From the NCBI RefSeq assembly GCF_900116765.1, contig NZ_UETC01000025.1, positions 1 through 38,399 of the forward strand: a stretch of DNA of 38,399 nucleotides, given 5' to 3'. The notes beneath the pieces were generated by a model that was not told the origin of the DNA, did no database searches, and saw only the letters and a list, made by a program, of their open reading frames with translations. Of the stretch, positions 7,885 to 38,399 are shown piece by piece (the first letter of the stretch is position 1; the number at the start of each line of letters is the position of its first letter). Made by a program: the position numbers and the translations under genes. This DNA is from Jannaschia seohaensis (lineage in GTDB: Bacteria; Pseudomonadota; Alphaproteobacteria; Rhodobacterales; Rhodobacteraceae).

Positions 7885-7920
7885 GAACAGGGATCCTTCA
7901 GGCGCAGGCGGCTGTGGGCG

Positions 7921-10900
7921 TCAGAATAGCAGGATGTCTCCGGGGTCCAGCCGCTGCCCCGCGCCGAGTTCTATCGTCAGGAGCGGCGCCGCCCCGCCCC
8001 GGCCATCGGGGTCGAGTTGCAGACGCCCGGTCGCCGAGTCGAAGATCGCGAGACCTGACCGGAGCGCGGCCTCGACCTGGCCCCCGGTCACGGGGCGCGG
8101 ATCGAAGTCGGCATCGCCCAGACCGAAGAAGCGGTCGTCCAGCGCCAGCTTGTCGCCGTCGCCGTAATCCCTGACCACGACCCGCGCCGTCCCCGCGCGG
8201 AGGAAGGCGAAGACATCCGGCCCCTCCCCTCCCGTCAGCACGTCGTCGCCGCCATCGGCCACCAGCGTATCGGCGCCGGGGCCGCCGTTCAGGCTGTCAT
8301 CGCCGGGGCCGCCCTCCAACCGGTCATCGCCCGCATGCGTCGTTACCAGATCGTCGCCGCTCAGCGCGCGCACCTGATCGCGCCCGTCGCCGGTGGCGAT
8401 CACATCCGCGCCTTGGGTTCCTGCGACCGCGCCATCGCCGCGGATCGCCCGGTCAGGAATGTCGAAGTGGGCGAGGATCTCGGTCGGCGCGCCCTCCAAC
8501 GTGCCCTCCAGGCGCCAGCCATCGTCCTCGCCGACCAGCGCGACCAGGGCAGGATCGACGCGCAGATCTCCGGTCAGATAGCGGCCATCGGTGATGGCCA
8601 GCCGGTCACCCTGCGCGGGATCGTAATCGGTGATCGTGGCGGTCCCGCCTCCGGTCAGCAGGAAGAGGTCGGCGCCCGCGCCTCCGGTCAACACGTTGGC
8701 GCCCGGCCCGCCGACCAGCACGTCGCGGCCCGCCCCACCGGACAAGGTATCGGGCCCGCCCGCCCCGTCGATCAGGTCGTTGCCGCCGCCGCCGTCGATC
8801 TCGTCGGCCTCCGGGCCGCCGCGCAGATCGTCGCCACGCGGGCTGGGCGCGTTGCTGTCGCGGTAGCGGATCAGCGTGCCGTCGCCCTCGGCCAGCACCT
8901 GCACGCCGCCGACCACGGCGCCGAAAAAGGTAAGCGTGGACGTACCGGACGGCCCGGTGATGTCCACGACAGTCTGGCCCACGAAGGCCGCCGTCAGCGC
9001 GTCGAGCGGCGCATCGCCGAAGAGCCCACCCAGGGACGGCGCCGCGCCCAACCCGGCCACATCGAGCGGCGCCAGCCCCTCGGTATCGAAGCGCCGTGCG
9101 ATGTCGAAGCTTTGCGAGCCACGCGGCACATCGGTCAGCAAAAGCTCCGAGCCGTCGCGGAAAGCCAGGATCTCGTCCCCGTCGAACTGCGCCAGCGTGC
9201 CTTCCAACCGGGCGCCCGCCTCGGCGGCGACGAGGGTCTCGGGTGCCTCCGTCACCACGATGTCCGACGTGTCGGTCATACGCAGCACCGCCTCGCCGGG
9301 GCGCAACAGGTCGATCAGCACCGACTGGCGCGTGACCGCGCCCGCTTCGTCGACGACTTCGTAGAAGAACACGTCCGTCCCGCGGAAATCGACGGCGCGC
9401 GGCGGGGTGTAGACGAAGACCTCCAACTCCGCGTCCCAGGCGACAGAGCCTTGCAGGCCGGGCGCGTCCGAGAGGCGCACGGGGTTGCCGTCCTCGTCAA
9501 GGGTGAAGCCGAAGCTGTCCGCCGGGTCGATGACGATGGGCACGCCGTTTTCGCGGACATAATCGATCGGGCCTTCCAGGTCGCTGTCATTGGCGATGGC
9601 GTCGATCAGGATCGGCGCGCGGCTGGTGGCGGTGAAGGTGTCCTCCACCGTCTCGGGCGGGGCGTTGACGGCGAAGTCCAGAACCCGTGGCGTGCCCACC
9701 GAACCGTCGTCATCGGCGAGGCTATAGGACAGACGCGCGGCGCCGGGCGCCGCGCCGGTGACGACCAGGACAGGACCCTCCGCGCCCTCCACGACCGACC
9801 AGGAGATGGCAGAGGCGTCGCCGATCTCCTGGACATCCAGGCTCTCCGCGTCGATCTCGCCATCGACATCCACCGCGCCCTCCAGGAGCAGGATGCGCGC
9901 CTCGCCCTCCACATCGACACCGATCTCCGCATCGCCCGGCAGTCGCGGCGCGTCGTTGACGCCCGCCACCTCGATATCAAGCGAGACCTGGACGGCGGTT
10001 CCCGCCGACGAGAGCGTCACCCGCGCCGCATCGCTGCCCTCAAAATCCGCCTCGGGGATGTAAACCCACCTGTATTCGCCCGGTCTCTCGGTGGCGGCGA
10101 AGGTGAGCAACCCGCCCTCCTCCGTCTCGATCGGGTCCAGGGCGAGAAGGCTGGCGATCTCGCCCGGGTCGGGATCGACCGCGAAGAGCGTGCCGTCGCC
10201 GCCCTCGTCTTCGGTCGCCGCGATGGCGGTCAGAACGGGCCCGTCCGGGGTCGCGCGCAGCTCCGGGTCGTCGGGGACCGGCAGGACCTGGATCGCGACG
10301 GTGGCCTGGGCCTTTTGCCCGGTCTCGTCGGTGGCGATGACGGTGACGCCGAGAGGCGTGGCGTTGGCGTCGGGCGCCGGCGCGAAGACGAAGCCCGTCT
10401 CCGTTGCCACCGCTCTCCCTGCCTCCGGGTCGATCCCGTCCGGGCCGAGGATCTCGCCGATGGAGAAGCTCAGCTCACCGAAGCCGCCCGTCCGCGTGGC
10501 GCTCAGGTCGACCGCAACGCTGCCATCCTCGTCGACGGTGACGGGCTCGCCCAGCCCGATCGCCAGGTCTTGCGCCATGGTGATCACCGCGCGCGCCGGG
10601 TCCGAGCGCAGGCCCGGAATGCTGCCCGCCAGCGTATAGTCGAGCCGCACCTCCTGCCCGCCGCGGCCGTCCCGACCCACAGGGTTGACCGCCAGTTCCT
10701 CGACCTTGCCCGCCGTCAGCACCAGGTCCGCGCCATCGACGAAGATGCCCGGCCCCGAGCCGTCGGTCCCATCCGAGAGATCGACCACCATCTCGAAGGT
10801 GGCCGGGTCCAGCGAGCCCCCCTCCGGCGCGACGTCATTGGCAAAGAGGCGCGTCAGCGGGATGCGGATACCTTCGAACACCTCTGCCGCGGGCAGGACG

Positions 10901-13900
10901 ATGGCGTCGTCGGACACAAGCGGCGGCGGCGTGACCTCGGTCACTTCGACCCACGCCGTATCGGTCAGGGTGATGCCGTCGGTGGCGACATAGCCGAAGC
11001 GGACGATCTCGTCCTTCTTGCCCTCGGGCGCGACGACGGTGAAGGTGCCGGTGCCGAGCCCATCGTTCGGGTCCGTCTCCTGGATGATCTCGCCATTGGC
11101 GAGGTCGCCATCTTGCAGGCGCGCTGCGTCCTCGGCGCTGTCGAAGCGCACCTCCCAGACCTTGAGCCTGTCGCCGTCCTCGTCGATGTCGTTCGCCAGC
11201 ACGTCTATAGTCGCGGGCCGGTCACGGATGACGAAGATTTCGTCGTCGACCGCCTCCGGCTCGGTGGCGGCATAGGTGATTTCCAGGCCGAGATAGTCGC
11301 CGGGCCCGGACCAATGGTTCGCATTAATGGCGCGATAGCTGCCGGCCTCGGTCTCGACGAGGGCGCCGACATCGCCCGTGCTTTGCGGATCGCCCAGGTC
11401 AGGCAGATCGACGAGGCGCAGCTCGAACTTGGAGGCGTCGTAGCGGCCCATCATCTCGAAGCTGAACTGGAGCCCCTGCCCCGGCGGACTGGTCCGGTCC
11501 AGCGGGTCGAGGATCTCGTCCTTGGTGCGAAAGCCGATATCGGCCGTGGCGGGCACCGTCCGCCCGGCATCGCCGGACGGGTCGGACAGGCTGTCGCCGA
11601 TATAGTCCGCCTCGAACAGCCCGATGGTCGCCGTCACGGTCGTGGTCGAGGCGTCCGTGCCGAAGTCGTTGCCGCTGGCCGAGAGATCGAAAGTCAGGGC
11701 GTGGCTGGCTCGGAGCGCGGCCGTGCCGGGGAATCCGCCGATCACGATGGAGGGCGTCGGGGACAGGAACTTGGTCCCGCTCGCCTTGTCCAGGCCCAGA
11801 TCGCCGAACACGCCAATGGCATCCCGCCCCTCGAACTGCGTCATGTCGACGAAGGCCAGATCGAACTGCGTGGTAATGTCGTAGACATATTCTCCGGGCA
11901 GGCCGCTGGAGGGGACGATCCTGTCGGTCTCGAAAAACGACGTTCTCAGACCTTGCAGGTTGAGCGGCACGAAGACCGTGTCGTCATTGCCGAAGCCCAC
12001 GATGGTGTCGTCTTGCAGCGCCGTCGCGGTCGAGGCCGCCGGGCCGATGGCGGGCGAGGGCTCCATGCCGATGCCAAGGGTGCTGTTGGAGACGCCCATC
12101 GGGCCGGTGATCATGTCGATGCCGTTCGGGTCGAGCACGTGCAGAACGTCGCGTGCGCGCAGATAGGCCTCGGGCAATTCGGACGCGGCGCCGATGGCGT
12201 TGCTCGTATAGAGGTTTTCGCCCGCCCCTCCCAACAGCACGTCGAAGGCCGCCGCCTCGTCTGGCCGGGCGGTGAAGGGCAGCGGGTCGCCATCGTCATC
12301 GACGCGCGCCACGCGCAGGGAGGGCGCGATGATTTCGTCGTCGAGCCCGCCCGCGAAGAGCGAATCGTCGCCGTCCCCGCCCTCCAGCCAGTCGGCGCCG
12401 TCGCCGCCGAATAGCCGCAGGTCGAAGATCGAGCCCCGCCCATCCAGGACATCGTTGCCCTCGAAGCCCCGATAGGTGGGACCGATCGGGATCCCTTCGG
12501 TGGTGGTGATGAGCGAGTCCGGTTCCAGCTCCGCGATGCGGAACAGGTCGTTGCCGCCCGTCGCCGTCGCCAGCTCGACATTGGCCTGGGCGACGGTCAT
12601 CACCGGCCCGGTCCGCGAGGTGAACCATTCCTCATACGGGGTCCGGCGCGTGCCCGTGTCGCTTTCCGTGACCGGCGACAGCGACACCTCCAGCCTGTCC
12701 ACCAATGCGCCCTCCGCGATCTCCTGCACGGTGACGGTCGGGGTGCCGATGACGGTGCCCTCGGCATCCACCAGATCGGGGCGGATCAGAAAGTTGAGCG
12801 AGACCTCGCGCGAGAGTTCCCCCTCCAGGTCGAACACCTGATAGCTGAGCCGGTCGCGCCCGAAGAAAGGCAGATCCTCGGTCGGATCGAACAGCCCGCC
12901 GACATCGCGGTCGCGGTTCACCGGCAGCGCGTCCCCGGTGCCCAGTTCCTCCCCGCCCTGGGGCGGCTCATATTCGAACCGGCGCAGGGGCAAGGTCTGC
13001 TCGCGGGCGATATAGACGAGTTCATAATCGACCGCCCCCGTCTCCGGGTCTTTCTCGAAGGCCGCCACGCGGATCAGGTTGCCCTGATCCGTGACCAGTT
13101 CGTCGCCGGGCGTGACGACCAAGGTGCCATTGGCGAAAGCCTCGCGCTTGTCGTCCTCGGTCACGGTCTCGACCACCTGAAACAGGTCGGCGATGCTCTC
13201 GGGCAGCGCGATCTGGCGGAAGGCGATGCCGTTCTCGGGATCGGCCTCGGTGTCGACGTCGAAATCGTTCAGAAAGGGGTCGAAGGCCACGCCGTCTTGG
13301 CTCCAGGCGGTCTCGACGCTCTCGCCGCGCGCGGTGGGCGGGATGTTGTTGTTGAAGATCTCGACGAAACGGACGGTCTCGCCCGCCGCGTTGACGTAGT
13401 CCCCGATGGCCGAGGTCAGCTTGGGGAACGACCCTTCCAGCCGGAACGTCGTGGTGGTGTCGCCGGAAGTGAAGGTGACCACTTCGAAGCCGTCCCGCGA
13501 CGTGCTGGTGAGGGTGTAGTCCTCGGCTTTCTGCACGTCGATCTCGATGCGGACGCTGTCGACGCGGTTGGTCAGGTTGCGGATCGTGTCGCCGTCGAAC
13601 TCCTCCGGCGTGCCGAAATAGACGTCGCCCGAGGCGCCCTCCAGGTCGAAACGGTCGCCATCGTCGGAGCGGCCGCCATCGAGCAGATCGGCCCCCAAGC
13701 CCCCCCGCAGAATGTCGGAGCCGGAGCCGCCGATCAGGGTATCGGCCCCATCGCTGCCCTCCATGCGGAAGCCGGCGCCCTGGTTGCTCAAGGCCTGCAA
13801 CATCCCCGCCTCAGCCCGCGCCAGGGTCAGGTCATAGACGGTGGAAGTCGCGAAGCCGTTCTGCCCGGCCTTGGCGCCGTCATGGGGGTTCTGCTGCCGC

Positions 13901-16050
13901 GCGACCTGCGAGACGTCGAACAGGAAAGGCCGCGCCCCGCCATAGAGCGCGTTCATATCGAAGGCCGCGCCGCTCACCTCAAGGCGCAGCGCGCCCGCGC
14001 CCGACATCTCCAGCCCGTCGAAGCCCGCGAGGCTGGCCGCATCGGTGCGCAGGACGCCCGCGCCCGCGCCGTCCGGCGCGATACGGAGCGTCTCGAACTG
14101 GGAGAAGCGGCCGGCAAAGGCGGTGAGGTCGAAATCGCTCGCCTCCACCGCGTCCCGCCCGGAGCCCGCATCGAAGCTGACGCCATCCTCATGGGTCGTG
14201 CCCCGGGCGAAAGCGTCACCCAGCACCACTTCGTCGATGCCCGCGCCGCCGCGCAACTCCGCCGTGGCGTCCACGAGGCGATGGCGCGCGCCCGTCTCGC
14301 TGAGCGTGACGACCGTATCGAGCCCCTCCCCGCCGAAGATCAGGTTCGTGCCGCCGGTCGAGACGAAGGTATCGGCCCCCGCGCCCCCCTCCATCGTGTC
14401 GTCGCCCATCCCGCCCTGGAGCGTGTCGGCCCCGTCGCCGCCGATCAGGCTGTCATCTTCCGCGCCCCCGAGGATCTGGTCGGCGCCGTCACCCCCGGCC
14501 AGGGTGTCGTCCCCTGCGCCCCCGAAGAGCAGGTCGGCCTCGGCGCCGCCGTCGATCTCGTCGTCATCCTCGCCGCCGAAAAGCTGGTCTTCGCCCGCGC
14601 CGCCGACGATCTGGTCGTCGCCCGCGCGCCCGCGCACGGTGTCGTCGCCCGCGCCCGCCAGGATCAGGTCCCGCCCCTCGGTCCCTTCGACGCTGTCGCC
14701 GCCGCCACCCGCCGCGGCAAAGCCGGACCAGCCGTCATCCTCGCTGCCGTCGGCCACGAGCGCGATGGTCTCGGCGGTGTCGGTGCCCACAAGGATCGCG
14801 TTGTCGGTGATGCCGAAGAACTCCAGCGCCCCACCCTCCCCGGCGATCAGCGCTTCGGTTGCGTCCCCGCCGACGCCCGCGGCGGAGGCCGGGCGGTCCA
14901 CCAGCACATCGGTCAGCGCGCGCGCCAAGTCCTGATAGGTCTGCTCCAGCCGCTCGAACGGCTCCTGAAGGGCGGCGATGAGATCGTCGATGATCTCGTT
15001 CATCTCGTCCAGGATGGGATCGACCACGGCGTCGATCGCGTCCTCGACGGCGCCGCGCACCCGCTGCTCCAGCGTGTCGAGCCCCAAGGCCTTCTCGACC
15101 TTTTCGAACGCCTCGTTGATCAGCCGCGTGATCGGCCCGAAGAAGTCGATCACCGGCTGGATTACCTTGCCCACCGCGTCCAGCACGCCCAGCGCGCCGT
15201 TGATCGGCTTCATCACCGCGCCCACGTCCGGGATGTCGAGCGAGGTGAGCGTGTCGAGTACCGTATCGACGGCATCGAGCCCGGTCCGGAAGGCGTCGAG
15301 CAGAAAGCCCGCCGCATCCGCCGCCCCGTTGGTCGCGCTGTCGATGGCGTCCTCGACCGCATCCAGGAAGGCGATGGCATCCTCGGCCAGGGCGCGACGA
15401 TCCTCGACCCGGGCGGCGAAGGCGTCGAGTCCCGGGCGCAGGTCGATCACCGTGCCCTCGCCCGGCGGCGCGGTCAGCGTCTCCAGCGCGGGCACGACCC
15501 GTGCTTCGACCGCGCCCCAGACCTCAATCTCCTCCTCCAAGGCGGTGCGCAATTCGCCCCGGATGGTGATGACATAGCCCGCCAGCTTCAGCGCCTTGTC
15601 GAGCCGCCCGAAGAACTTGATCTGAGAGTTCAGCGTCTCCTCGATGGTCGTTAGCGTCTCTTCGATGGTCTCGACGGCGGTCAGCGCGCTATCCTTGCTG
15701 AGATCGATGGAGTTGATGATCTTGCGCAGGGTCGGATGCGGGATGGCCTTGAGCGTCTTCAGGATCGTCTCGGCGTCTGCGTCCTTGGCGATGAGTTCGC
15801 TCAGCGGCTCGCGGATCTCCTGGATGCCGTCCCGCTTCTCGGTGAGCTTGTCGACCTTCTTCTTGAGCTTGGACTTGCCCAGCGGCGTCGCGGCGGCGTT
15901 CTCGTCGACGACCGGTTTGATCGCGCGGATCCAGAGGGGGCGTTCTTCTTCCAGTTTGAGGCGGTCATAGAGCTCCGAAAATGTGCCGAGCGTCGCGCTC
16001 GTCTCCTCTCCCAGCTTTGCCGTCCCGATCGTCGTGGAAATCCCGTCCAT
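7921..16050 (-). CDS. giant RTX protein with Ig/cadherin-like segments
   Basis: A 2709-residue putative surface or extracellular protein. Residues 1 to about 380 are helix-rich, with no signal peptide and no recognised family. Eleven in-register RTX nonapeptides follow (about 460-558), then a short RTX patch near 770-800 and another near 1200-1245. The middle contains segments of the bacterial Ig/cadherin-like type, recognisable by VLANDIDEDGD (about 1600-1640), LFANDVAPEGG (about 1730), GVNDAP and AIANDSDLEGP (about 2130-2165). Two further RTX blocks lie near 2415-2460 and 2557-2610. The C terminus (LDDRFFGLGD to DILLF) is a type I secretion-like tail shared with the next gene. The ATG at 16050 has GAGGGG seven bases upstream; a TTG at 16065 is less likely. 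It is probably an adhesin or matrix protein. No HlyB/HlyD/TolC genes are in the window. Confidence 0.88.
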   Translation of the reverse strand: MDGISTTIGTAKLGEETSATLGTFSELYDRLKLEEERPLWIRAIKPVVDENAAATPLGKSKLKKKVDKLTEKRDGIQEIREPLSELIAKDADAETILKTLKAIPHPTLRKIINSIDLSKDSALTAVETIEETLTTIEETLNSQIKFFGRLDKALKLAGYVITIRGELRTALEEEIEVWGAVEARVVPALETLTAPPGEGTVIDLRPGLDAFAARVEDRRALAEDAIAFLDAVEDAIDSATNGAADAAGFLLDAFRTGLDAVDTVLDTLTSLDIPDVGAVMKPINGALGVLDAVGKVIQPVIDFFGPITRLINEAFEKVEKALGLDTLEQRVRGAVEDAIDAVVDPILDEMNEIIDDLIAALQEPFERLEQTYQDLARALTDVLVDRPASAAGVGGDATEALIAGEGGALEFFGITDNAILVGTDTAETIALVADGSEDDGWSGFAAAGGGGDSVEGTEGRDLILAGAGDDTVRGRAGDDQIVGGAGEDQLFGGEDDDEIDGGAEADLLFGGAGDDTLAGGDGADQILGGAEDDSLIGGDGADTLQGGMGDDTMEGGAGADTFVSTGGTNLIFGGEGLDTVVTLSETGARHRLVDATAELRGGAGIDEVVLGDAFARGTTHEDGVSFDAGSGRDAVEASDFDLTAFAGRFSQFETLRIAPDGAGAGVLRTDAASLAGFDGLEMSGAGALRLEVSGAAFDMNALYGGARPFLFDVSQVARQQNPHDGAKAGQNGFATSTVYDLTLARAEAGMLQALSNQGAGFRMEGSDGADTLIGGSGSDILRGGLGADLLDGGRSDDGDRFDLEGASGDVYFGTPEEFDGDTIRNLTNRVDSVRIEIDVQKAEDYTLTSTSRDGFEVVTFTSGDTTTTFRLEGSFPKLTSAIGDYVNAAGETVRFVEIFNNNIPPTARGESVETAWSQDGVAFDPFLNDFDVDTEADPENGIAFRQIALPESIADLFQVVETVTEDDKREAFANGTLVVTPGDELVTDQGNLIRVAAFEKDPETGAVDYELVYIAREQTLPLRRFEYEPPQGGEELGTGDALPVNRDRDVGGLFDPTEDLPFFGRDRLSYQVFDLEGELSREVSLNFLIRPDLVDAEGTVIGTPTVTVQEIAEGALVDRLEVSLSPVTESDTGTRRTPYEEWFTSRTGPVMTVAQANVELATATGGNDLFRIAELEPDSLITTTEGIPIGPTYRGFEGNDVLDGRGSIFDLRLFGGDGADWLEGGDGDDSLFAGGLDDEIIAPSLRVARVDDDGDPLPFTARPDEAAAFDVLLGGAGENLYTSNAIGAASELPEAYLRARDVLHVLDPNGIDMITGPMGVSNSTLGIGMEPSPAIGPAASTATALQDDTIVGFGNDDTVFVPLNLQGLRTSFFETDRIVPSSGLPGEYVYDITTQFDLAFVDMTQFEGRDAIGVFGDLGLDKASGTKFLSPTPSIVIGGFPGTAALRASHALTFDLSASGNDFGTDASTTTVTATIGLFEADYIGDSLSDPSGDAGRTVPATADIGFRTKDEILDPLDRTSPPGQGLQFSFEMMGRYDASKFELRLVDLPDLGDPQSTGDVGALVETEAGSYRAINANHWSGPGDYLGLEITYAATEPEAVDDEIFVIRDRPATIDVLANDIDEDGDRLKVWEVRFDSAEDAARLQDGDLANGEIIQETDPNDGLGTGTFTVVAPEGKKDEIVRFGYVATDGITLTDTAWVEVTEVTPPPLVSDDAIVLPAAEVFEGIRIPLTRLFANDVAPEGGSLDPATFEMVVDLSDGTDGSGPGIFVDGADLVLTAGKVEELAVNPVGRDGRGGQEVRLDYTLAGSIPGLRSDPARAVITMAQDLAIGLGEPVTVDEDGSVAVDLSATRTGGFGELSFSIGEILGPDGIDPEAGRAVATETGFVFAPAPDANATPLGVTVIATDETGQKAQATVAIQVLPVPDDPELRATPDGPVLTAIAATEDEGGDGTLFAVDPDPGEIASLLALDPIETEEGGLLTFAATERPGEYRWVYIPEADFEGSDAARVTLSSAGTAVQVSLDIEVAGVNDAPRLPGDAEIGVDVEGEARILLLEGAVDVDGEIDAESLDVQEIGDASAISWSVVEGAEGPVLVVTGAAPGAARLSYSLADDDGSVGTPRVLDFAVNAPPETVEDTFTATSRAPILIDAIANDSDLEGPIDYVRENGVPIVIDPADSFGFTLDEDGNPVRLSDAPGLQGSVAWDAELEVFVYTPPRAVDFRGTDVFFYEVVDEAGAVTRQSVLIDLLRPGEAVLRMTDTSDIVVTEAPETLVAAEAGARLEGTLAQFDGDEILAFRDGSELLLTDVPRGSQSFDIARRFDTEGLAPLDVAGLGAAPSLGGLFGDAPLDALTAAFVGQTVVDITGPSGTSTLTFFGAVVGGVQVLAEGDGTLIRYRDSNAPSPRGDDLRGGPEADEIDGGGGNDLIDGAGGPDTLSGGAGRDVLVGGPGANVLTGGAGADLFLLTGGGTATITDYDPAQGDRLAITDGRYLTGDLRVDPALVALVGEDDGWRLEGTLEGAPTEILAHFDIPDRAIRGDGAVAGTQGADVIATGDGRDQVRALSGDDLVTTHAGDDRLEGGPGDDSLNGGPGADTLVADGGDDVLTGGEGPDVFAFLRAGTARVVVRDYGDGDKLALDDRFFGLGDADFDPRPVTGGQVEAALRSGLAIFDSATGRLQLDPDGRGGAAPLLTIELGAGQRLDPGDILLF
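8221..8382 (-). repeat. six RTX nonapeptide repeats near the C terminus of the giant protein
   Basis: Six nine-residue units run from RDQVRALSG to DDVLTGGEG, immediately before the secretion-tail segment that begins PDVFAF. The register is intact but some units are degenerate (DDLVTTHAG). Confidence 0.85.
8674..8808 (-). repeat. five RTX nonapeptide repeats in the giant protein
   Basis: Five in-register nine-residue units run from ADEIDGGGG to ANVLTGGAG and are followed by ADLFLL, the usual capping segment of a beta-roll. Confidence 0.88.
14377..14673 (-). repeat. eleven RTX nonapeptide repeats, N-terminal third of the giant protein
   Basis: Eleven uninterrupted nine-residue units run from RDLILAGAG to DDTMEGGAG, with capping segment ADTFVS after them. 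This is the longest RTX run in this protein and directly follows the helical N-terminal part. Confidence 0.92.
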
Positions 16051-16297
16051 GGTCGCGCCCCTCAAATGCGATGCGGGGCCGGCGGGCCGGTCCCATCACC
16101 ACCCTGACCCTACGTCAATCCCTGAACGCTACGCGCGACACGGCCTGCCAAGCAAATGTTTCCGGCCGCGGCGCTCTGGGTCCGGAGGTGCGCAACCTTC
16201 CGCGCATTGGTCGGAAGCGGCCTAGTTGTGCCACGGTTCGGCCCCGATCCCGCGTATCTGAAAGGTGAAACTGACCGCGACCGACAAAGAGGCCGCC
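16051..16297 (+). promoter_or_regulatory. divergent intergenic region between two RTX exoprotein genes
   Basis: This 247-base gap separates the giant RTX gene (leftward) from the CAP-RTX gene (rightward), so it should hold promoters for both. A TTGACG hexamer occurs on the minus strand at 16118-16113, but no good -10 box follows at the usual spacing. No strong operator palindrome was found. Shared control of the two exoproteins is inferred from layout only. Confidence 0.4.
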
Positions 16298-17641
16298 ATG
16301 ACCATCGCCACCGATCTCGAGCGCAGGATGCTCGACCTCGTCAATGCCGCGCGCGCCGCCGAAGGGCTGGGCGCGCTGGCTCTGGAGTTGAACCTGAATG
16401 CCGCCGCCGACGACCACAGTGCCTGGATGCTGGCGGAGAACGACTTCAGCCATACCGGCGCGGGCGGCAGCAGTCCGAGCGAGCGGATCGCGGAGGCGGG
16501 CTTCGACCTCAGCGGCCGCTGGGGCACCGCCGAAAACATCGCGATTCAATCGGTTCGGGGCGCGCCCGGGCTCGTGGACGATGTGGCGAACCTCCATACG
16601 TCGCTCATGAACTCGCCGGGGCACCGGGCCAACATCCTCAACCCGTCCTACGACTGGATCGGGATCGGAATCGATACCGCCGACTTTACCTATACGGGCG
16701 GCTGGACCTTCACCTCGGTCGTGGTGACGCAGAAATTCGCCTATACAGGTGGAACGGTGGATCCGGACCCGGGACCCGATGCGTCGCCGAGCCAGCCAGC
16801 CGAGGAGACGCCGCCCGCCGATCCCGCGCCCGGCAGCCCGACGCAAGACACAGAAACCGAAGCGCCGTCGGACGATCCGGTCGCGGAGACCCCGATGCAA
16901 GATCCCGCGCCCAAAGCCCCCACAAACGATCCCGCCTCCGACCCGCCCGAGGACGAGACGCCCGCGACCGGCCCGACGGAAGGCGACGACCTGCTGCACG
17001 GCACGGCGGAGGCCGACACCATCGACGCCCTCGGCGGCGACGACAGCGTCGAAGGGGACGAGGGGGACGACCGGCTTCTGGGCCGCGGCGGGGCCGACAC
17101 TCTGGACGGGCGTGCGGGCGCGGACACGCTCGATGGCGGCTGGGGCGCGGATCTGCTGCGAGGCGGTGACGGAAACGACCGCCTTTCGGGCAGCCGAGGT
17201 CACGACAGGCTGGAAGGCGGCACCGGCGCGGATCTGCTTGGCGGCGGCCGGGGCAACGACACGCTGGAGGGCGGCGCGGGCAATGACACGCTTGCGGGCG
17301 GCGACGGTGACGATGTCCTTACCGGCGGGGATGGCGCAGACGTCTTCGTCTTCGTCGACTCGAACGGCACCCCCGATGGCGACCGGATCACGGATTTCGA
17401 AAGCCGCCAGGACAGCATCTGGCTTTCGGCCGACCTCCTGGGCGTCGACGGGGGGCGGCTGCGCCTGTCGTACACGGAGCTCGGTACGGTCGCGCGGAAG
17501 GCGGACACGCGCCTGCTCTATGATCGCGAGACGGGCGAGGTGCGGATCGACGCGGATGGCGCGGGCGGGGCGGAGGCGCAGTTGCTCGTCACCTTCGACG
17601 GCGGGGACGCGCCGCATTCGAGCGATGTCCTGCTGATATGA
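16298..17641 (+). CDS. CAP-domain (SCP/PR-1-like) RTX exoprotein
   Basis: A 447-residue protein with a CAP domain at about 5-148, a linker rich in Pro, Asp and Thr (about 152-228), thirteen RTX nonapeptides (230-346) and a C-terminal tail ending DVLLI. CAP cavity residues are present: His52 in FSHTG, Glu79 in GTAENIA and His109 in SPGHRANIL. There is no N-terminal signal peptide, which fits type I secretion directed by the C terminus. CAP proteins bind or process varied targets outside the cell and the bacterial members are poorly understood, so no activity is assigned. The ATG at 16298 is preceded by AGAGG; a GTG at 16265 lacks a site. The gene is transcribed divergently from the giant RTX gene. 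Confidence 0.9.
   Translation: MTIATDLERRMLDLVNAARAAEGLGALALELNLNAAADDHSAWMLAENDFSHTGAGGSSPSERIAEAGFDLSGRWGTAENIAIQSVRGAPGLVDDVANLHTSLMNSPGHRANILNPSYDWIGIGIDTADFTYTGGWTFTSVVVTQKFAYTGGTVDPDPGPDASPSQPAEETPPADPAPGSPTQDTETEAPSDDPVAETPMQDPAPKAPTNDPASDPPEDETPATGPTEGDDLLHGTAEADTIDALGGDDSVEGDEGDDRLLGRGGADTLDGRAGADTLDGGWGADLLRGGDGNDRLSGSRGHDRLEGGTGADLLGGGRGNDTLEGGAGNDTLAGGDGDDVLTGGDGADVFVFVDSNGTPDGDRITDFESRQDSIWLSADLLGVDGGRLRLSYTELGTVARKADTRLLYDRETGEVRIDADGAGGAEAQLLVTFDGGDAPHSSDVLLI
16985..17335 (+). repeat. thirteen tandem RTX nonapeptide repeats (27-bp units)
   Basis: Thirteen uninterrupted nine-residue units run from DDLLHGTAE to DDVLTGGDG and end exactly at ADVFVF. This is the longest unbroken RTX run in the window. 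Confidence 0.95.
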
Positions 17642-29733: not shown

Positions 29734-30537
29734 ATGATCCGCACCGCGCTCTTCACGATTGCCACTTCGGCCGCGCTCTGGGGCACGCCCGGCCCTTCCT
29801 CCGCGATGGAAGTCGACCTGGAGCTTGTTCTTCTCGTCGATGTCTCGCGGTCGATGACCGAGCGTGAACTCGAGATTCAGAGGCAAGGCTACGCGGCCGC
29901 CCTGCGGTCGGACGACGTCTTCGCCGCCATTCGGTCGGGTCTGCTGCAACGGGTGGCTCTGACTTACGTTGAATGGGCCGGCACTCAGGACGTGGTCGTC
30001 GATTGGAGGCTTCTGGAAACACGCGCGGATCTCGATGATTTTGCGCATGTCCTGACCACGCGCTTCGATCCTGCGCTTCGCCGCACCTCGATCTCCGAAG
30101 CCCTGATATTCGGGGCCGAGATGATCGAAAACAACGCGTTCTATGGCCTGCGCAAGGTGATCGACGTGTCTGGCGACGGCCCCAACAATCAGGGTCGCCC
30201 GGTCCTGGAGGCGCGGGACGCGGTGCTGTCGCAATCTATCGTCATCAACGGCTTGCCGCTGATGACGCGCGAGGGGATGGGCAGTCAGTGGCACCTCGAG
30301 GACCTCGACATCTATTACAGGAGCTGCGTCATCGGCGGTCCGGGCTCCTTCGTGATCCCAGTGCTTGACTGGCAAGACTTCGCGGAAGCCGTGCGCCGCA
30401 AGCTGGTGCTCGAAATCGCGTTGGTGCCGTCGTTCGAGCAAGTCGTGCCAGTGCAATACAGCCCGGAGACACCCTATGACTGCCTGGTCGGGGAGAAGGC
30501 CTGGGAGCGGCGCCAACAATATTGGTCCCTGCCCTGA
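29734..30537 (+). CDS. secreted DUF1194 von Willebrand-type protein
   Basis: A 267-residue protein with a signal peptide (about 1-24, ending PSSA) and a VWA-like domain of the DUF1194 family common in Rhodobacterales. The metal-site motif is DVSRS at 36-40; other family marks are VALTYVEWAG, TSISEALIFGAEMI and VIDVSGDGPNNQG. Two cysteines (YRSCVIGG and YDCLVGE) could form a disulfide. The function of the family is unknown; a periplasmic or extracellular metal-dependent binding role is likely. A stop codon lies three bases before the AGG that precedes the ATG, so the start cannot move upstream; the only purine-rich site, GAAGG, abuts the ATG. Confidence 0.88.
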   Translation: MIRTALFTIATSAALWGTPGPSSAMEVDLELVLLVDVSRSMTERELEIQRQGYAAALRSDDVFAAIRSGLLQRVALTYVEWAGTQDVVVDWRLLETRADLDDFAHVLTTRFDPALRRTSISEALIFGAEMIENNAFYGLRKVIDVSGDGPNNQGRPVLEARDAVLSQSIVINGLPLMTREGMGSQWHLEDLDIYYRSCVIGGPGSFVIPVLDWQDFAEAVRRKLVLEIALVPSFEQVVPVQYSPETPYDCLVGEKAWERRQQYWSLP

Positions 30538-31038
30538 CCCGAGGAGCCCTGGCATGAAATGGGAATGACAGCGCGCCCGTCCGGTCCCAGTTCCGTTGAA
30601 CCGCGCCGCTTCCCGGGTTCGAATGCCCCCGCTCTCGTTGCCCAGGCGCGGGAAGGCCATCAGTCCCTCCGACCCGCCCTGCCATAGCCCATCCCCGGGC
30701 CGCATCGCGACCCGACGGGACCAGCGCGCGCCTCCCGCCCTCTCCGCAACCGCCCTCATCGGCAGCGTCGCATGCCGGGCTAAAGGAGCCCGCAAGCCAC
30801 GGCCGTCCCAACCTCGATCAGAGACTTGAGACAGCGGCGTGGCTCTGGGGCACAAATCGGTTGACGGCCGAGGTTCCCTTTCACCGGAGGGGCTTATCCC
30901 ACAGTGTCCGTGACGGGTATACCGGGCGCGGTGTAGCCGTTCAGCATGGCGATCCGGACCCGAAGCTCTGCGGCCTGGCGGTCGAGGGCAGATCGCTGCG
31001 CCCCGAGCCACCTTCCCCTCACAGGCCCCGGTCGGATG
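30538..31038. other. convergent intergenic region, possible gene remnant
   Basis: These 501 bases lie between two convergent genes. On the minus strand, about 31010-30895, the frame reads a helical-looking tail (ALDRQAAELRVRIAMLNGY, then a short end and TAA) in a frame that is not used by the neighbouring gene. It could be the 3' remnant of a lost gene or chance. A GGGTTCGAAT at about 30616 resembles a tRNA T-loop but does not fold as one. Nothing else is recognised. Confidence 0.3.
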
Positions 31039-33477
31039 TCAGTCGATGCCCGGGATTGCCTGGACCTCGATCCTGTAGCGCTCGGTGGATCGCGCGTTGT
31101 CGTTGCCGTCCGCGACCTCGATGATGTAGCGACCGGGGACGAGACCGTCGATCTCGGCGACGGTATCTCCGCCCTCCGCCAGTGGCGCATTCCAGCCCGA
31201 AACAACGGCGCCGCCTTCGTTTCGCAGTCGGAAGTGCAGGTCGAGTTCTGCGGGGACGGATGTGAGCGCGACCCGCAGCCCTCCGGGCGCGTCGAGCGTC
31301 ACGGCGAACCAGTCACGGTCATCCTCGGGAAAGATCGCGGCCTCCCGGGGCGTGCCCAGGGTCAGCGCCGCCGCGGTGCCGGATCCGTCACTGGGCTCGG
31401 TCGTGTCGCCGGTCGGGGTAAAGGCCGTCGACAGGCGGTAGGGCTCGGCGCTGCGGGCATTGTCGCCCCCGTCGGCCAGTTCCAGCAGATAGCGCCCCGC
31501 GCGCGGAAGGTCGATCACGGTGCGCGTCGGCCCTCCGGCGGCAAGCGGCGCGGCCCAGCCGGTGATCGTCTCCTTATCCGCGTTCCAGGCCCGCACCACG
31601 ATGTCCAGTTCGGGCGCGACCTCGGACGCCTCGACGCTGAGCGCGCCCTGGTCGCCAACCTCAATGGCATACCAATCGCGATCGCCGCGGGGCAGGATAT
31701 TGGCCTGCACGTCCGCCCCCGCGGTCAACCGCGTTGCATCCCCAAAGCGGTTGTTCGGCTCGCCGCGATCGGCGGTCGCGGCGAGAGAGACCTGGAGATC
31801 GTAGGGCGCGGCGCTGCGCGCGTTGTCGCCGCCGTCGCGTAGTTCCAGGTACCAGCGGCCAGGATGCGGGATGTCCACCACCTGCACGTTATCGCCGCCC
31901 TCGCGCAGCGGAGAGAACCAGCCGGCCAGGACGTCGCGGTCTTCAGACCAGACCCGGAAGACGACGTCGAGCTCCGGGGGAGGCGACGTGATGGAGACTG
32001 TCAGCGCCCCCTGCTCCGGCAGGTCGAGCGCATACCAGTCCGCATCGGCCCTCGGCAGGATCGCCGCCTCGACAGGGGTGTCGAGTGCCAGGGGCTGCGC
32101 CGTGCCGGCGGACACGTTCGGCTCTCCGCTGTCGGGCGTCGGCGTGAAAGCCGTGGTCAGGGTGTAGGGCAATGCGCTGCGGGCGTCGTCGCCGCCGTCG
32201 CGCAGTTCGATCAGGTAGGTCCCAGGCCGCGGCAGGTCGGTGACGCCGGCCAGGTCCGCGCCCGGGCCGATCGGGCGATACCAGCCGGCCAGCACGTCTT
32301 TGTTCGCGGTCCAGACCCTGTAATGCAGGTCGAGCTCGGGCGCGACATCGCCCAAGATCACGTCGAGCGCGCCCTGATGGTCGACGGTGACCGCGTACCA
32401 ATCCACGTCGCCCCGAGGCAGGATGGCATCCTGAACCGAGGCACCGATGACCAGCGGGTGGGCGAGGTCGAATCGGTCGTTGGGCTCTGTCGCGTCCGGC
32501 GTCGCGGTGAAGCTGGCGGTGACGGCGTAAGGTTCGACCGAGCGGGCGTTGTCCCCGCCGTCGCGCAACTCGATCCAGTAGTCTCCGGCGGCGGGCAAGT
32601 CCGCCGTGCCGCTGGTTTCGCCGCCCTCCCGCGCCGGAGCGGTCCAGTTCTGCAAGACCGCGCGTTCCGCGCTCCAGACCCGGTAAGTGACATCGAGGGT
32701 CTCGGGCACGTCCGTTACCATCAGCGCCAGTTCGCCGGCGTGATCGACCGTCACGCGGTACCAGTCCACGTCGCCCTCGGGCAGGATCGTGGCCCGAAGA
32801 GGCCCGGCCATCGGCAAGCGCAGGGCGGTCGCGGCGGCGAAGCTGTTATTCGGCTCACCCGCGTCATCCGTCGCGGTGAAGGCGAAAGACAGCGCGTAGT
32901 CGGCGTCCGAGAACGCGTCGTCGCCCCCGTCCCGCAACTCAAGCCAGTAGCGCCCCGGCTCCGGCAGGTCGATCACCGCGCGCAACTCCGCGCCCTGCCG
33001 CATCGGACGGAACCAGCCCGACAACACGTCCTTGTTGCGGGTCCAGGCCCGGAGACTGAGATCCAACTCGCTCGGAACGGCGGTCGTGCTGACGATCAGT
33101 TCGCCCTGCCGGGGCACCTCGATCATGAACCAATCGACGTCGTCCTCGGGCGTGATACGGCCCGTGACGGGCCCGGATGGCGAGACCCGATTGGCCTGCG
33201 AGAACTTGTCGTTCGGCTCGTCCTCGGCGCTCATCAGCGGGGTCAGACCGCTCACCCCAGTCGCGGCCGCCAGCGCGCCGGTCAATGAGGCCGGATCGTC
33301 GGACGCGTGGTAGGTTCCGCCCGCGGCCTCGGCCATGCGTCGCAGCTGATCCTCGGCCGAGCCAGAGACCTCCATGCCGATGATGTGCACCTCGATCTCG
33401 ATCTCGCCTGGGACCTGCGCAGCGGCCGCGCCGGCGAGGACCAGCACCACGATCAACACTGGGAAAATCCGGGTCAT
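31039..33477 (-). CDS. secreted protein: VWA C-terminal-like segment plus six PPC-like repeats
   Basis: An 812-residue protein. A clear signal peptide covers 1 to about 20 (MTRIFPVLIVVLVLAGAAAA). Residues 25 to about 75 (IEVHIIGMEV, then QLRRMAEAAGGTYH) look like the last strand and helices of a VWA domain, with no metal-site motif. Six repeats follow from residue 87, each opening EPN (EPS in the sixth), with DWY, a Trp-Pro stretch and a closing ELRDGGDNARS-type motif, resembling bacterial pre-peptidase C-terminal (PPC) domains. EPN starts are at 87, 208, 331, 452, 573 and 694. GGAG lies eight bases before the ATG at 33477; an ATG at 33495 is possible. The upstream gene encodes the matching VWA N-terminal part and ends 28 bases before this start. 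Function is unknown. Confidence 0.85.
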   Translation of the reverse strand: MTRIFPVLIVVLVLAGAAAAQVPGEIEIEVHIIGMEVSGSAEDQLRRMAEAAGGTYHASDDPASLTGALAAATGVSGLTPLMSAEDEPNDKFSQANRVSPSGPVTGRITPEDDVDWFMIEVPRQGELIVSTTAVPSELDLSLRAWTRNKDVLSGWFRPMRQGAELRAVIDLPEPGRYWLELRDGGDDAFSDADYALSFAFTATDDAGEPNNSFAAATALRLPMAGPLRATILPEGDVDWYRVTVDHAGELALMVTDVPETLDVTYRVWSAERAVLQNWTAPAREGGETSGTADLPAAGDYWIELRDGGDNARSVEPYAVTASFTATPDATEPNDRFDLAHPLVIGASVQDAILPRGDVDWYAVTVDHQGALDVILGDVAPELDLHYRVWTANKDVLAGWYRPIGPGADLAGVTDLPRPGTYLIELRDGGDDARSALPYTLTTAFTPTPDSGEPNVSAGTAQPLALDTPVEAAILPRADADWYALDLPEQGALTVSITSPPPELDVVFRVWSEDRDVLAGWFSPLREGGDNVQVVDIPHPGRWYLELRDGGDNARSAAPYDLQVSLAATADRGEPNNRFGDATRLTAGADVQANILPRGDRDWYAIEVGDQGALSVEASEVAPELDIVVRAWNADKETITGWAAPLAAGGPTRTVIDLPRAGRYLLELADGGDNARSAEPYRLSTAFTPTGDTTEPSDGSGTAAALTLGTPREAAIFPEDDRDWFAVTLDAPGGLRVALTSVPAELDLHFRLRNEGGAVVSGWNAPLAEGGDTVAEIDGLVPGRYIIEVADGNDNARSTERYRIEVQAIPGID
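31042..33219 (-). repeat. six tandem PPC-like repeats of about 363 bp
   Basis: Unit starts (coding direction) are at 33219, 32856, 32487, 32124, 31761 and 31398, giving spacings of 369 once and 363 otherwise; the last unit is 357 bases. At protein level the units share EPN, (I/L)(L/F)P-x-x-D-x-DW(Y/F), PELDL-like strands and (D/N)ARS. Confidence 0.92.
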
Positions 33478-33505
33478 GGTCTGGCTCCGTTGCATGGTGA
33501 CACGC

Positions 33506-36115
33506 TTATTGGCCGATTGCGGCGACCGGGTCGCCGCCACAGCTTTCCTCGCCATCGGTCAACAATATGAAGCGCTTGCGCGCACCGCGCGCCTCGGTCT
33601 GAAGGTAGGTTCGACCCTGGGCCGACGCGGCGGCCAGCGGGGTCGAGCCGCTGGGCCGGATGCCGGGCAGCACGGCGATGATTTCTCCGGGGTCGGTGGT
33701 GAACGGAACTTCGAGCCGGATACTTCCGCAGTCATAGAACACCATCAGCGCAACCTCGATGTCGCCGCCGGCCTGGATCCCTTGCAGGACAGCCGTAGCG
33801 GCGGCGCGGGCCTTCTCGATGCGGCCGTCGTCGCCCATGCTGCCGGAGGCGTCGAAAACGATCAGGATCGACTCGGCCAGCGTGGGCGTAGGCCGCGAGC
33901 TGATGGACCAGATGTCGGAATAGAGCAGCAGCGCGTCCGCGAGGCATTGCTCATAGCCCCTCTGCGCGATGTCCAGCAGGACCTCGGATGCATCGACCTC
34001 CCCGAAGATCGCGTCGATTTCCTGTTCGGGTGTCTGGCCCTGCGGACCTGCAGTAGCCTGCGGGCAACGCGCCTTCGCCGCATCGACGAGGGCCTGCAAG
34101 GAGGCGAGGTCGGGCGCGTCGTCGATGGACCGGTAGGTATAACCACGGCTTCCAAACCAATCCCCCTCGACGCCGTATTGGCAGGACAGCGCCGGCGACA
34201 AGGCCGTGTCGAGTGCTTGGAGGATGCCGCGCAGCTCGGCGCCCAGCGGACCGGAGCGATGGGGCTCCAGCGCCGCGCGGACGAGATCCGCGCGCTGCTC
34301 GGCCTGGGTGATCAGACCCGTGACCCTCCGCTGGGCTGCATGCATCGCTCCCTTCGCCGTCGCGAAATCCGCTGCGATCGACGCAGCATCGGCGGCGCGC
34401 AGATCGGCCAGCCAGCCGTCGAGCCGTGCGAGGTCCTGGGCCACGAGATCGAGCCGGAGCCCGGACTGGGGCGCCTGGCTGGCGCTCGTCACTTGGCGCC
34501 GGATCTCTGCGATATCGGAATGGGCTTTCCGAGCGGCCTCGACACCGGCTTGCGCCTGCGCCGCGCCGTCGCGCGCGGATTGAACCAGCGCGAGCGCCGC
34601 AGGCTGGTCGGCGGCAGTGTCGATGCCGTCGCGCGCGGTGCAGGCGGCGTTCAAGCCCGCCTGCGCCTCGGCGAGCCCGCTGTCGAAGACGCTCCTTAGG
34701 CGCCGCGCCTCGGTCAGATCGCCCGCGAGTGACGCGCCGTCAGGGCCGCAGTCGGGAATGTCACGGGCCCGTATGCGGATGTCGAAGGCGATGCTGCTGA
34801 GCCTTGCCATCGCCGCACGGGCCGCTTCCGCCTCGGTCTTGGCCGCATCGTAGGCCGCACAGGCCGCGACGGCGCCGGCGGCGGCCCGCGCCACGGCATC
34901 GGCGTCGGCCTGACTTCCGGTGATGGCCGCGCGCGCGTCGCGCGTGAGCTGCGCCGCCTCCGCATCTGTCATCGCGGCCAGCGCAAGCGCCGAGAGCCGC
35001 TGCCCCAGAGCCTGCGCGAAGGCGTCGCTCGACGCCATCAATTCGGCCTGCGCCGCGTCTATCTCGGCGGTCAGCCGGCGCTCTTCCTCGGCGATGCGGC
35101 TGGCGACGAGATCGCTGATCCAACTGCGCGGCGACTGGCCCGTTGTGCGATAGGCCTCCAGCATCTGCATCCGGATCGTGTCCGGGTCGATATTCGCCGC
35201 AAGCAGCGCGCGGTCGAACTCCCGATCGGCATAGGCGGCCCCGCCGAGCAGGGCGCAGCGATCATATTCGCTGAGGCTCGACGCGGCGTTCCGGGTCCGA
35301 TTGTAGGTGGTCACATAGGCCTGAAGGCAAGTGTCGATGAAGTAGTCCGAAAGCGCGCCCTGCGACCAGCGGATGAACTGTTTTTCGTAGGCTATCACCT
35401 GCAAATAGGCCTGTCCGGGCGCGACCCCGAGATCGGTGAACGCCCAGTCGATCACGCCGGCGACGGTGTTCTGGGACAGGCTCTCGAGCTCCGAGATCGC
35501 CTCGCCTTTGACGATCTGGAAGGCCTGCCCGGTGTCGCCGCGCAGCAGCGCCGTGCCGACCTGCTGCAAGCTGCCCGCGCGGTTCACAAGCGTGTCCCAG
35601 ACCAGCTTGGTCTGATCGTGTCCCTTTTCCTCCAGGATATCGCCGACGATCGATGCGAAGAGGGTCGCGCCGACGCGCGGCATCTCCTTCTTCAGGGCGG
35701 TATAATTGCCCGCGCTGGCCGCGCCGGCCATCTGTGCGAATCGTGCCGCGTCGGCGCGCAAGGCATCCGCGGCCATCAACGCGTACTTCGAGGAGTATTT
35801 CCGCCAGGCGCTCTCGTTTTGCGGCGTGTAGAGGTCGTCGAGACGTTGGCTGAGCGTCTTGGCGGCTTCTTCGTCGGCGGTTCGTTGTGCCACCTGGCCG
35901 GCGCGCACGGCGGTCAGTTCGTCATGGAGCGCCTGCAAGATCTGGTTCTGATCTTGCTCGCTAAGGACCGCCCAGATGGTCCCGTCGAACGGCCCGGCCG
36001 AGGCGCGCGGCATCGACAGCGTCAGCGCGAGCGCCACGACGCCGACGAAGCGGAGAGCGCGGACGCATAGCCCGCACGGCCTGTTCAGAAGGGCTGAGGT
36101 CATCGAGCTTGCCAC
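33506..36115 (-). CDS. secreted helical protein ending in a C-terminally incomplete VWA domain
   Basis: An 869-residue protein. A signal peptide of about 40 residues ends ASA before GPFDG. Residues about 43-740 are mostly helical and Ala-rich, with probable coiled coils around 380-640 and scattered cysteines, and match no family I know. The C-terminal VWA part runs from about 745: metal-site residues are Asp755-x-Ser757-x-Ser759 (FDASGSM), Thr near 825 (GSTPLAAA) and Asp854 (LLTDGEESCGGDP). The protein stops 15 residues after Asp854, about 50 residues short of a normal VWA end. The following gene starts 28 bases later and appears to supply that end. The GTG start at 36115 has AGGA nine bases upstream; an ATG at 36103 is an alternative that keeps the signal peptide. 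Confidence 0.85.
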   Translation of the reverse strand: MASSMTSALLNRPCGLCVRALRFVGVVALALTLSMPRASAGPFDGTIWAVLSEQDQNQILQALHDELTAVRAGQVAQRTADEEAAKTLSQRLDDLYTPQNESAWRKYSSKYALMAADALRADAARFAQMAGAASAGNYTALKKEMPRVGATLFASIVGDILEEKGHDQTKLVWDTLVNRAGSLQQVGTALLRGDTGQAFQIVKGEAISELESLSQNTVAGVIDWAFTDLGVAPGQAYLQVIAYEKQFIRWSQGALSDYFIDTCLQAYVTTYNRTRNAASSLSEYDRCALLGGAAYADREFDRALLAANIDPDTIRMQMLEAYRTTGQSPRSWISDLVASRIAEEERRLTAEIDAAQAELMASSDAFAQALGQRLSALALAAMTDAEAAQLTRDARAAITGSQADADAVARAAAGAVAACAAYDAAKTEAEAARAAMARLSSIAFDIRIRARDIPDCGPDGASLAGDLTEARRLRSVFDSGLAEAQAGLNAACTARDGIDTAADQPAALALVQSARDGAAQAQAGVEAARKAHSDIAEIRRQVTSASQAPQSGLRLDLVAQDLARLDGWLADLRAADAASIAADFATAKGAMHAAQRRVTGLITQAEQRADLVRAALEPHRSGPLGAELRGILQALDTALSPALSCQYGVEGDWFGSRGYTYRSIDDAPDLASLQALVDAAKARCPQATAGPQGQTPEQEIDAIFGEVDASEVLLDIAQRGYEQCLADALLLYSDIWSISSRPTPTLAESILIVFDASGSMGDDGRIEKARAAATAVLQGIQAGGDIEVALMVFYDCGSIRLEVPFTTDPGEIIAVLPGIRPSGSTPLAAASAQGRTYLQTEARGARKRFILLTDGEESCGGDPVAAIGQ

Positions 36116-38243: not shown

Positions 38244-38354
38244 GTCGTATCATTGGGCCTCGACGGCGTGACCGTCTTCGTCGCGTATCGTCGATGACCC
38301 ACTTTAAAGCAACGGACGCGTTCGTAGACTCGGGACTATGTCGGGTGGCGTAGT

Positions 38355-38378
38355 TATGATTCACGTTGTGCAGGAGGG
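38355..38378 (+). promoter_or_regulatory. possible -10 box and ribosome site for a gene at the right edge
   Basis: TATGAT at 38355-38360 is one base from the consensus -10, with no good -35 at the usual distance. AGGAGGG at 38372-38378 lies eight bases before an ATG, an excellent ribosome-binding site. Confidence 0.4.
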
Positions 38379-38386
38379 CTTTGGCG

Positions 38387-38399
38387 ATGCCTGCACCGC
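38387..38399 (+). CDS. possible start of a further gene (partial)
   Basis: The ATG at 38387 follows AGGAGGG with eight-base spacing and reads Met-Pro-Ala-Pro before the window ends. No product can be named. Confidence 0.4.

What the first reader, a model, noticed from the sequence alone, without database searches (positions are those of the whole stretch)
33300..33870. A VWA domain apparently split across two separately exported proteins
Seen: the gene ending at 33506 has the complete VWA metal site (DASGS, Thr, TDGEESCGGDP) but stops about 15 residues after the last metal-site Asp. The next gene, in a different frame and 28 bases on, has its own Sec signal peptide and then IEVHIIGMEV...MAEAAGGTYH, which looks like the missing final strand and helices of a VWA fold. 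Known: single-chain VWA proteins of this group run from LLTDGxETCGGDP through a short helix to a VHVVGF-like strand and a helix ending GGxY. Inferred: each half is exported and they join in the periplasm or outside, so the helical protein and the PPC-repeat protein form one complex through a shared fold. A simple frameshift does not explain it, because joining the frames would insert a hydrophobic signal segment of about 40 residues into the domain.
Basis: partly seen in the sequence, partly recalled or inferred. Interest (0 to 1): 0.82.

Follow-up and report, generated by a model that had tools for sequence, protein, structure and literature searches.

The report
One VWA domain shared by two proteins
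Two neighbouring bacterial genes each encode an exported protein that carries only half of a von Willebrand factor A (VWA) domain, and the same half-and-half arrangement recurs in distant bacteria, which suggests that the two proteins complete one binding domain together outside the cytoplasm.

Summary
Gene A (36115-33506, minus) stops inside a VWA domain that has all its metal-site residues. Gene B (33477-31039, minus) starts 28 bases on with its own signal peptide, then the missing last part of a VWA, then PPC repeats. A's 15 closest relatives, of 44 non-self hits, stop at about the same place. At four other loci (L044, L045, L046, L070) the next gene again has signal peptide, VWA C-half and PPC repeats; at two more (L062, L063) the C-half sits at the other end of the PPC protein. 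A profile from whole VWAs finds the C-half in 7 of 12 partner genes and 0 of 29 PPC controls; five partners remain undecided. In 29 of 29 fetched loci of the window's class the VWA is whole. Read as one chain, the halves model as one VWA (weaker control 85, 92). Physical assembly is inferred, not shown. No report of a split VWA turned up in the searches made. Best reading: an obligate two-protein, metal-dependent binding domain completed after export.

The parts
33506..36115 (-). gene A: signal peptide (by eye), long helical region, VWA N-half at the C-terminus (869 aa from GTG; 865 aa from ATG 36103)
   Evidence: Pfam VWA_2 E 2.2e-13 at residues 750-856
33509..33871 (-). VWA N-half of A (residues 749-869): strands 1-4 and the start of helix 5, all MIDAS residues
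   Evidence: AF2 model
33839..33853 (-). MIDAS motif DASGS
33641..33643 (-). MIDAS Thr (SGSTPLA)
   Evidence: invariant column in alignments A5 and A9
33554..33556 (-). MIDAS Asp (LLTDGEE)
   Evidence: invariant column in alignments A5 and A9
33485..33488 (-). GGAG, ribosome-binding-like site of gene B
   Evidence: by eye
31039..33477 (-). gene B: signal peptide, VWA C-half, PPC repeats (812 aa)
   Evidence: Pfam PPC E 2.5e-23
33415..33477 (-). signal peptide region of B, MTRIFPVLIVVLVLAGAAAAQ
   Evidence: sequence, by eye; mean hydropathy 3.49 over 11 residues
33244..33405 (-). VWA C-half of B (about residues 25-78): strand 5, helix 6, strand 6, helix 7
   Evidence: AF2 model
31042..33219 (-). 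PPC-type repeats of B, six by eye
   Evidence: Pfam PF04151, three stretches pass on their own; six EPN-like repeat starts counted by eye

Best explanation
A and B are an obligate two-gene system in which one VWA domain is shared by two separately exported proteins. A supplies strands 1-4 with the whole metal site; B supplies strands 5 and 6 and helices 6 and 7 at its mature N-terminus, directly in front of its PPC repeats. Both chains cross the inner membrane through their own signal peptides, and B's C-half docks on the open edge of A's sheet in the periplasm or outside, so that the metal site, A's helical region and B's PPC rod become one adhesin- or receptor-like particle. Shown: the two halves, their homology to VWA, their conservation as neighbours, and that they model as one fold when read as one chain. 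Inferred: that they bind each other, where, and the binding role. Because helix 7 leads straight into the PPC chain, the joint could also act as a switch or a force-sensitive clasp; this step is by analogy with integrin I domains and is speculation.
Against: No two-chain prediction and no experiment. The AF2 test ties the halves together by a linker, which favours docking, and AF2 knows the VWA fold; in the control model the C-half is only at pLDDT 56-81 and its tail at 42. The agreement is also what linked inheritance alone would give. L061 is an N-half-only gene whose next gene has no C-half by profile (E 7.9); one is seen only by eye. At L071 and L048-L050 the next gene is also an exported PPC protein with a membrane anchor, but the C-half is again by eye only, and L048-L050 alone compare with whole VWAs at probability 6.5. 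P0043 carries a free C-half and a complete VWA in one chain, so a C-half need not always serve a split N-half.
Confidence: 0.82

Rival explanations
1. The C-half of B is an autonomous small domain, and A's shortened VWA works alone; the two are neighbours but do not complete each other.
For: No direct binding evidence. P0043 has a free C-half beside a complete VWA. L061, an N-half-only gene, has no C-half by profile in the next gene.
Against: Of 8 loci with an N-half-only gene whose next gene could be read (own, L044, L045, L046, L070, L062, L063, L061), 7 have a C-half there by profile; the C-half matches the C-terminal part of whole VWAs; the module sits at the other end of the partner in L062 and L063 while the pairing stays; without it A's sheet lacks its last two strands.
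Confidence: 0.12
2. One interrupted gene: a frameshift, a sequencing error or a programmed frameshift yields a single-chain protein.
For: The two frames overlap (B's frame is open from 33555), and single-chain VWA + PPC proteins exist (P0041, P0043).
Against: The break recurs at about the same residue in 15 relatives from other contigs and in named genomes; each B has its own start and a signal peptide that would lie inside the domain; the frame step is +1 here but +2 at L044, L045, L046, L070, L062 and L063, worked out by me from the coordinates; in L062 and L063 the C-half is at the far end of the second gene, so no frameshift could make a VWA.
Confidence: 0.03
3. A decayed VWA: A's domain is degenerate and the C-half of B is a relic.
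For: B has no match in the 19 other genomes of the genus that were searched.
Against: The metal-site residues are invariant in the 13 N-halves aligned, the C-half modules keep 29-45 % identity to B's, and the pair occurs in at least two phyla by record titles (Rhizobiaceae, Planctomycetaceae and Phycisphaerae MAGs).
Confidence: 0.03

Closest known systems
[quoted passage not shown]
   Same: MIDAS residues, strand and helix order, LLTDGxETCGGDP and HVIGF...GGxY motifs; the fused model superposes on solved VWAs
   Different: The fold is cut inside helix 5 and the two parts are on two exported proteins; 29 of 29 fetched VWA loci of the window's class are in one frame
Single-chain VWA + PPC proteins P0041 and P0043
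   Same: VWA followed by the same kind of PPC repeats in one chain
   Different: Not split; P0043 also carries an extra free C-half ahead of its whole VWA
Donor-strand complementation in pili (recalled, no call)
   Same: A fold is finished by a segment from another exported protein
   Different: There one strand completes an Ig-like fold; here two strands and two helices, about 50 residues, would complete a Rossmann-like fold, and the pair is encoded together
Integrin alpha I domain (two passages read, PMC6275225)
   Same: Metal-site domain whose C-terminal helix alpha7 is coupled to a neighbouring chain; a pull on that helix opens the domain
   Different: The helix is covalently part of the I domain there; here it belongs to the partner protein
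McaA periplasmic VWA (passages read, PMC9512821)
   Same: Exported VWA with a MIDAS needed for function
   Different: Drawn as a single chain; no PPC partner is described in the passages read

Membership tests
VWA domain | MIDAS residues DxSxS, Thr, Asp | tested here: met
   All present in A and invariant in the 13 rows of alignment A5
VWA domain | Complete domain within one polypeptide | tested here: not met
   A has no C-half by profile and ends at the end of the N-half; PF00092 is matched only to position 123 of 174, though the shorter PF13519 is matched in full; Pfam finds no VWA in B
VWA domain | C-terminal strands and helices homologous to VWA, wherever encoded | tested here: met
   model
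PPC-domain proteins (PF04151) | PPC domains at the curated cut-off | tested here: met
   83.2 bits against a cut-off of 25.9
Programmed-frameshift gene | Same frame step in relatives and a continuous product that makes sense | tested here: not met
   +1 here, +2 at six other loci (from coordinates); a signal peptide would lie inside the domain
Fold complementation in trans | The two chains bind and form one fold | tested here: inconclusive
   Only a one-chain reading could be modelled
Integrin I domain-like switch | Movement of helix 7 changes the metal site | not testable with these tools
   Analogy only

The most novel reading that the evidence does not exclude
Split VWA domains form a general class of bacterial surface or periplasmic devices, in at least two gene architectures and two phyla, in which a metal-binding receptor domain exists only when two exported proteins meet, with helix 7 on the partner acting as an assembly- or force-dependent switch for the metal site.
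Probability: 0.35. Interest if true: 0.92.

Novelty: new variant of a known kind. Interest (0 to 1): 0.82.

Why it matters
If true, one of the commonest adhesion folds can be held in two halves by two exported proteins and completed outside the cytoplasm, a form of fold complementation that I found no report of for VWA (searches named in the full report). It offers a natural pair of protein halves, a simple test of heteromer formation, and a possible natural example of a VWA whose regulatory helix belongs to another chain. It also warns that annotating such genes as a short VWA protein plus a PPC protein hides a shared domain.

Tried and rejected
Frameshift, assembly error and decay: rejected (see rivals). 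Plasmid records: tblastn with A gave 4 records, best covering 20 % of A at 31 % identity; with B 1 weak match at 25 %. A viral-contig scan with P0004 found no relative. A first genome-contig scan with A3 found no relative among 91 stretches. B searched in 100 genomes, its own included: 4 of the other 99 had a match, all weak and covering a small part. L061, L071 and L048-L050: the partner's C-terminal segment looks like a C-half by eye, but the profile does not find it, so they are not counted as paired. One search showed several loci in a wrong frame; one search supersedes it. MAFFT misplaced C-half-only rows in A7 and A8, so these were not used for modelling. The Foldseek and VIA-align lists contain VWA domains of many kinds; I draw no closer kinship from their order. 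The N-half profile over 398 genomes of the phylum gave 6 matches at 1e-5, of which only this genome's is strong (123 bits, the others at most 31.8); over 249 genomes of the order of L045 only L045's own genome.

Limits: genome searches score only a capped number of candidates per genome (for the window's genome 14 of 42 and 14 of 47). For P0046-P0060 I could not see whether each ends at a stop codon or at a contig end; the shared end point argues for a stop. The pairs P0055/P0007 and P0059/P0025 are suggested only by equal longest-contig lengths and sources. Signal peptides were judged by eye and hydropathy only.

Full report
What is there. On the minus strand gene A runs from 36115 to 33506 and gene B from 33477 to 31039. 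A has a signal peptide (by eye), a long helical region without a Pfam match above cut-off, and at its C-terminus a VWA domain that begins with DASGS and stops after TDGEESCGGDPVAAIGQ. B starts 28 bases on, in another frame, behind GGAG, with the signal peptide MTRIFPVLIVVLVLAGAAAAQ, then IEIEVHIIGMEVSGSAEDQLRRMAEAAGGTYH, then PPC repeats, six by eye.

The end of A is conserved. A search with A's VWA region alone gave 44 non-self hits. The 15 best, P0046-P0060, have very different lengths (504-1055 aa), yet all end 12-21 residues on, counting from the first residue of TDG, 10 of 15 at 17 like A; none of these 15 has a C-half by profile. Of the other 29 hits, 22 have a C-half recognised by the module profile after the N-half in the same chain; in the remaining 7 the profile found none at 1e-3. 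P0061 and P0062 are single chains with 30 and 33 residues between the two profile matches, at the very place where A stops.

The start of B is conserved too. Of 44 proteins found with B, 12 have a C-half near the N-terminus and no N-half; P0045 has the C-half at its C-terminus; P0041 and P0043 are single chains with a whole VWA; 29 have no C-half (one of them, P0042, matches only the linker end of the profile). Eleven of the 12 were themselves rows of that profile, so the independent test is: a profile made only from ten whole VWAs finds the C-half in 7 of 12 partner genes from genomic loci (own, L044, L045, L046, L070 at E 1.1e-13 to 2.7e-18; L062 and L063 at 7.8e-6 and 7.8e-7) and in 0 of the 29 PPC proteins without it (best E 0.18). 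The five partners not found are L061, L071 and L048-L050. Profile against profile: B-type modules versus whole-VWA C-halves probability 99, E 4.9e-18; the eight C-terminal modules together probability 97, E 8e-11, but L048-L050 alone 6.5.

The two halves are neighbours. A genome-contig scan with the N-half gave 7 loci. L044 (Planctomycetaceae MAG), L045 (Rhizobiaceae MAG) and L046 (Phycisphaerae MAG) each have an N-half-only gene followed by a C-half gene, at gaps of 44, -4 and 29 bases. L047 (Thermoplasmatota MAG) is a small whole VWA. L048-L050 have long proteins with other material after the N-half and are undecided. A search of 294 genomes from the phylum of L044's genome gave 5 matches: that genome, L061, L062, L063, and the whole VWA L059. 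One of 248 genomes from the class of L046's genome gave 3: that genome, L070 and L071. L070 repeats the arrangement of this window. L062 and L063 have a different one: the N-half gene overlaps the start of a gene for signal peptide, PPC repeats, C-half and a membrane anchor. So the partner can carry the C-half at either end, which neither a frameshift nor a simple break of one gene would give. L061, also N-half-only, has an exported PPC partner with a membrane anchor in which a C-half is seen only by eye. The step between the two frames is +1 here and +2 at L044, L045, L046, L070, L062 and L063 (from coordinates).

Ordinary VWAs are whole. The C-half alignment matched 41 of 385 genomes of the window's class, its own included; the 29 loci fetched from other genomes all have N-half and C-half in one frame, 0 to 13 residues apart. 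In the window's genome the C-half module and the N-half each gave one match at the thresholds used, with 14 of 42 and 14 of 47 candidates scored. B has no match in the 19 other genomes of the genus, and by DNA only short pieces of the pair's stretch match there, whereas the antiporter gene about 1.8 kb beyond B is matched over most of the part searched in 5 of 19 at 72-80 %; the pair looks like a sporadic acquisition.

How it may work. Passages of PMC7159879 describe the VWA as six strands with two metal-site aspartates at the ends of strands 1 and 4, and the MIDAS as a peptide-binding site. All of the metal site lies in A. B adds strands 5 and 6 and helices 6 and 7. The simplest reading is an obligate heteromer formed after export. 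In the integrin alpha-M I domain the packing of helix 7 differs between closed and open forms, and a pull on the C-terminal helix is held to open the domain (two passages of PMC6275225); here that helix belongs to B and leads into the PPC rod, so assembly or tension could set the metal site. This last step is analogy only. Donor-strand complementation is recalled, not looked up.

Novelty. Searches for split, truncated, half, incomplete, bipartite or partial VWA domains listed a Giardia Rpn10 paper, a wheat gene-family paper and a protein-folding paper; none was opened. Searches that combine VWA with PPC, MIDAS, fission or complementation terms listed 3 of 3 papers, 15 of 78, 7 of 7 and none; no listed title is about a split VWA. 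The library holds open-licence papers only, so a report elsewhere is possible.

Noticed in passing
window 29734-30537 (+): A DUF1194 protein (Pfam E 4.7e-76, with a sub-threshold VWA_2 match) lies just beyond gene B on the other strand; whether it belongs to the system is unknown.
   Followed up: no
window 30841-30985: A stretch of about 145 bases between DUF1194 and gene B recurs many times in the genus at 68-83 % identity; Rfam has no match in the window. It may be an intergenic repeat family.
   Followed up: partly
window 38305-38399: The last 95 or so bases of the contig recur at 100 % in four other contigs of the same genome (C7, C8, C11, C16), at least once at a contig end: probably a mobile-element end that broke the assembly.
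   Followed up: no
window 6130-17641: A cluster of RTX-repeat proteins: 584 aa, 2714 aa with Ig- and cadherin-like domains, and 458 aa with a CAP domain and a serralysin-type C-terminal match.
   Followed up: no
P0043: A single chain with a free VWA C-half in front of a complete VWA and PPC repeats; its neighbour gene could not be read.
   Followed up: no
L048, L049, L050, L071: A further family: proteins of 1224-1435 aa with a VWA N-half followed by a long different C-terminal region, next to a small exported PPC protein with a membrane anchor and a segment that looks like a C-half by eye.
   Followed up: partly
L062, L063: These N-half proteins end in RRLRIRGAEIREELR and LLRERGAVVREGGR, that is right before strand 5, somewhat later than gene A does.
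   Followed up: partly
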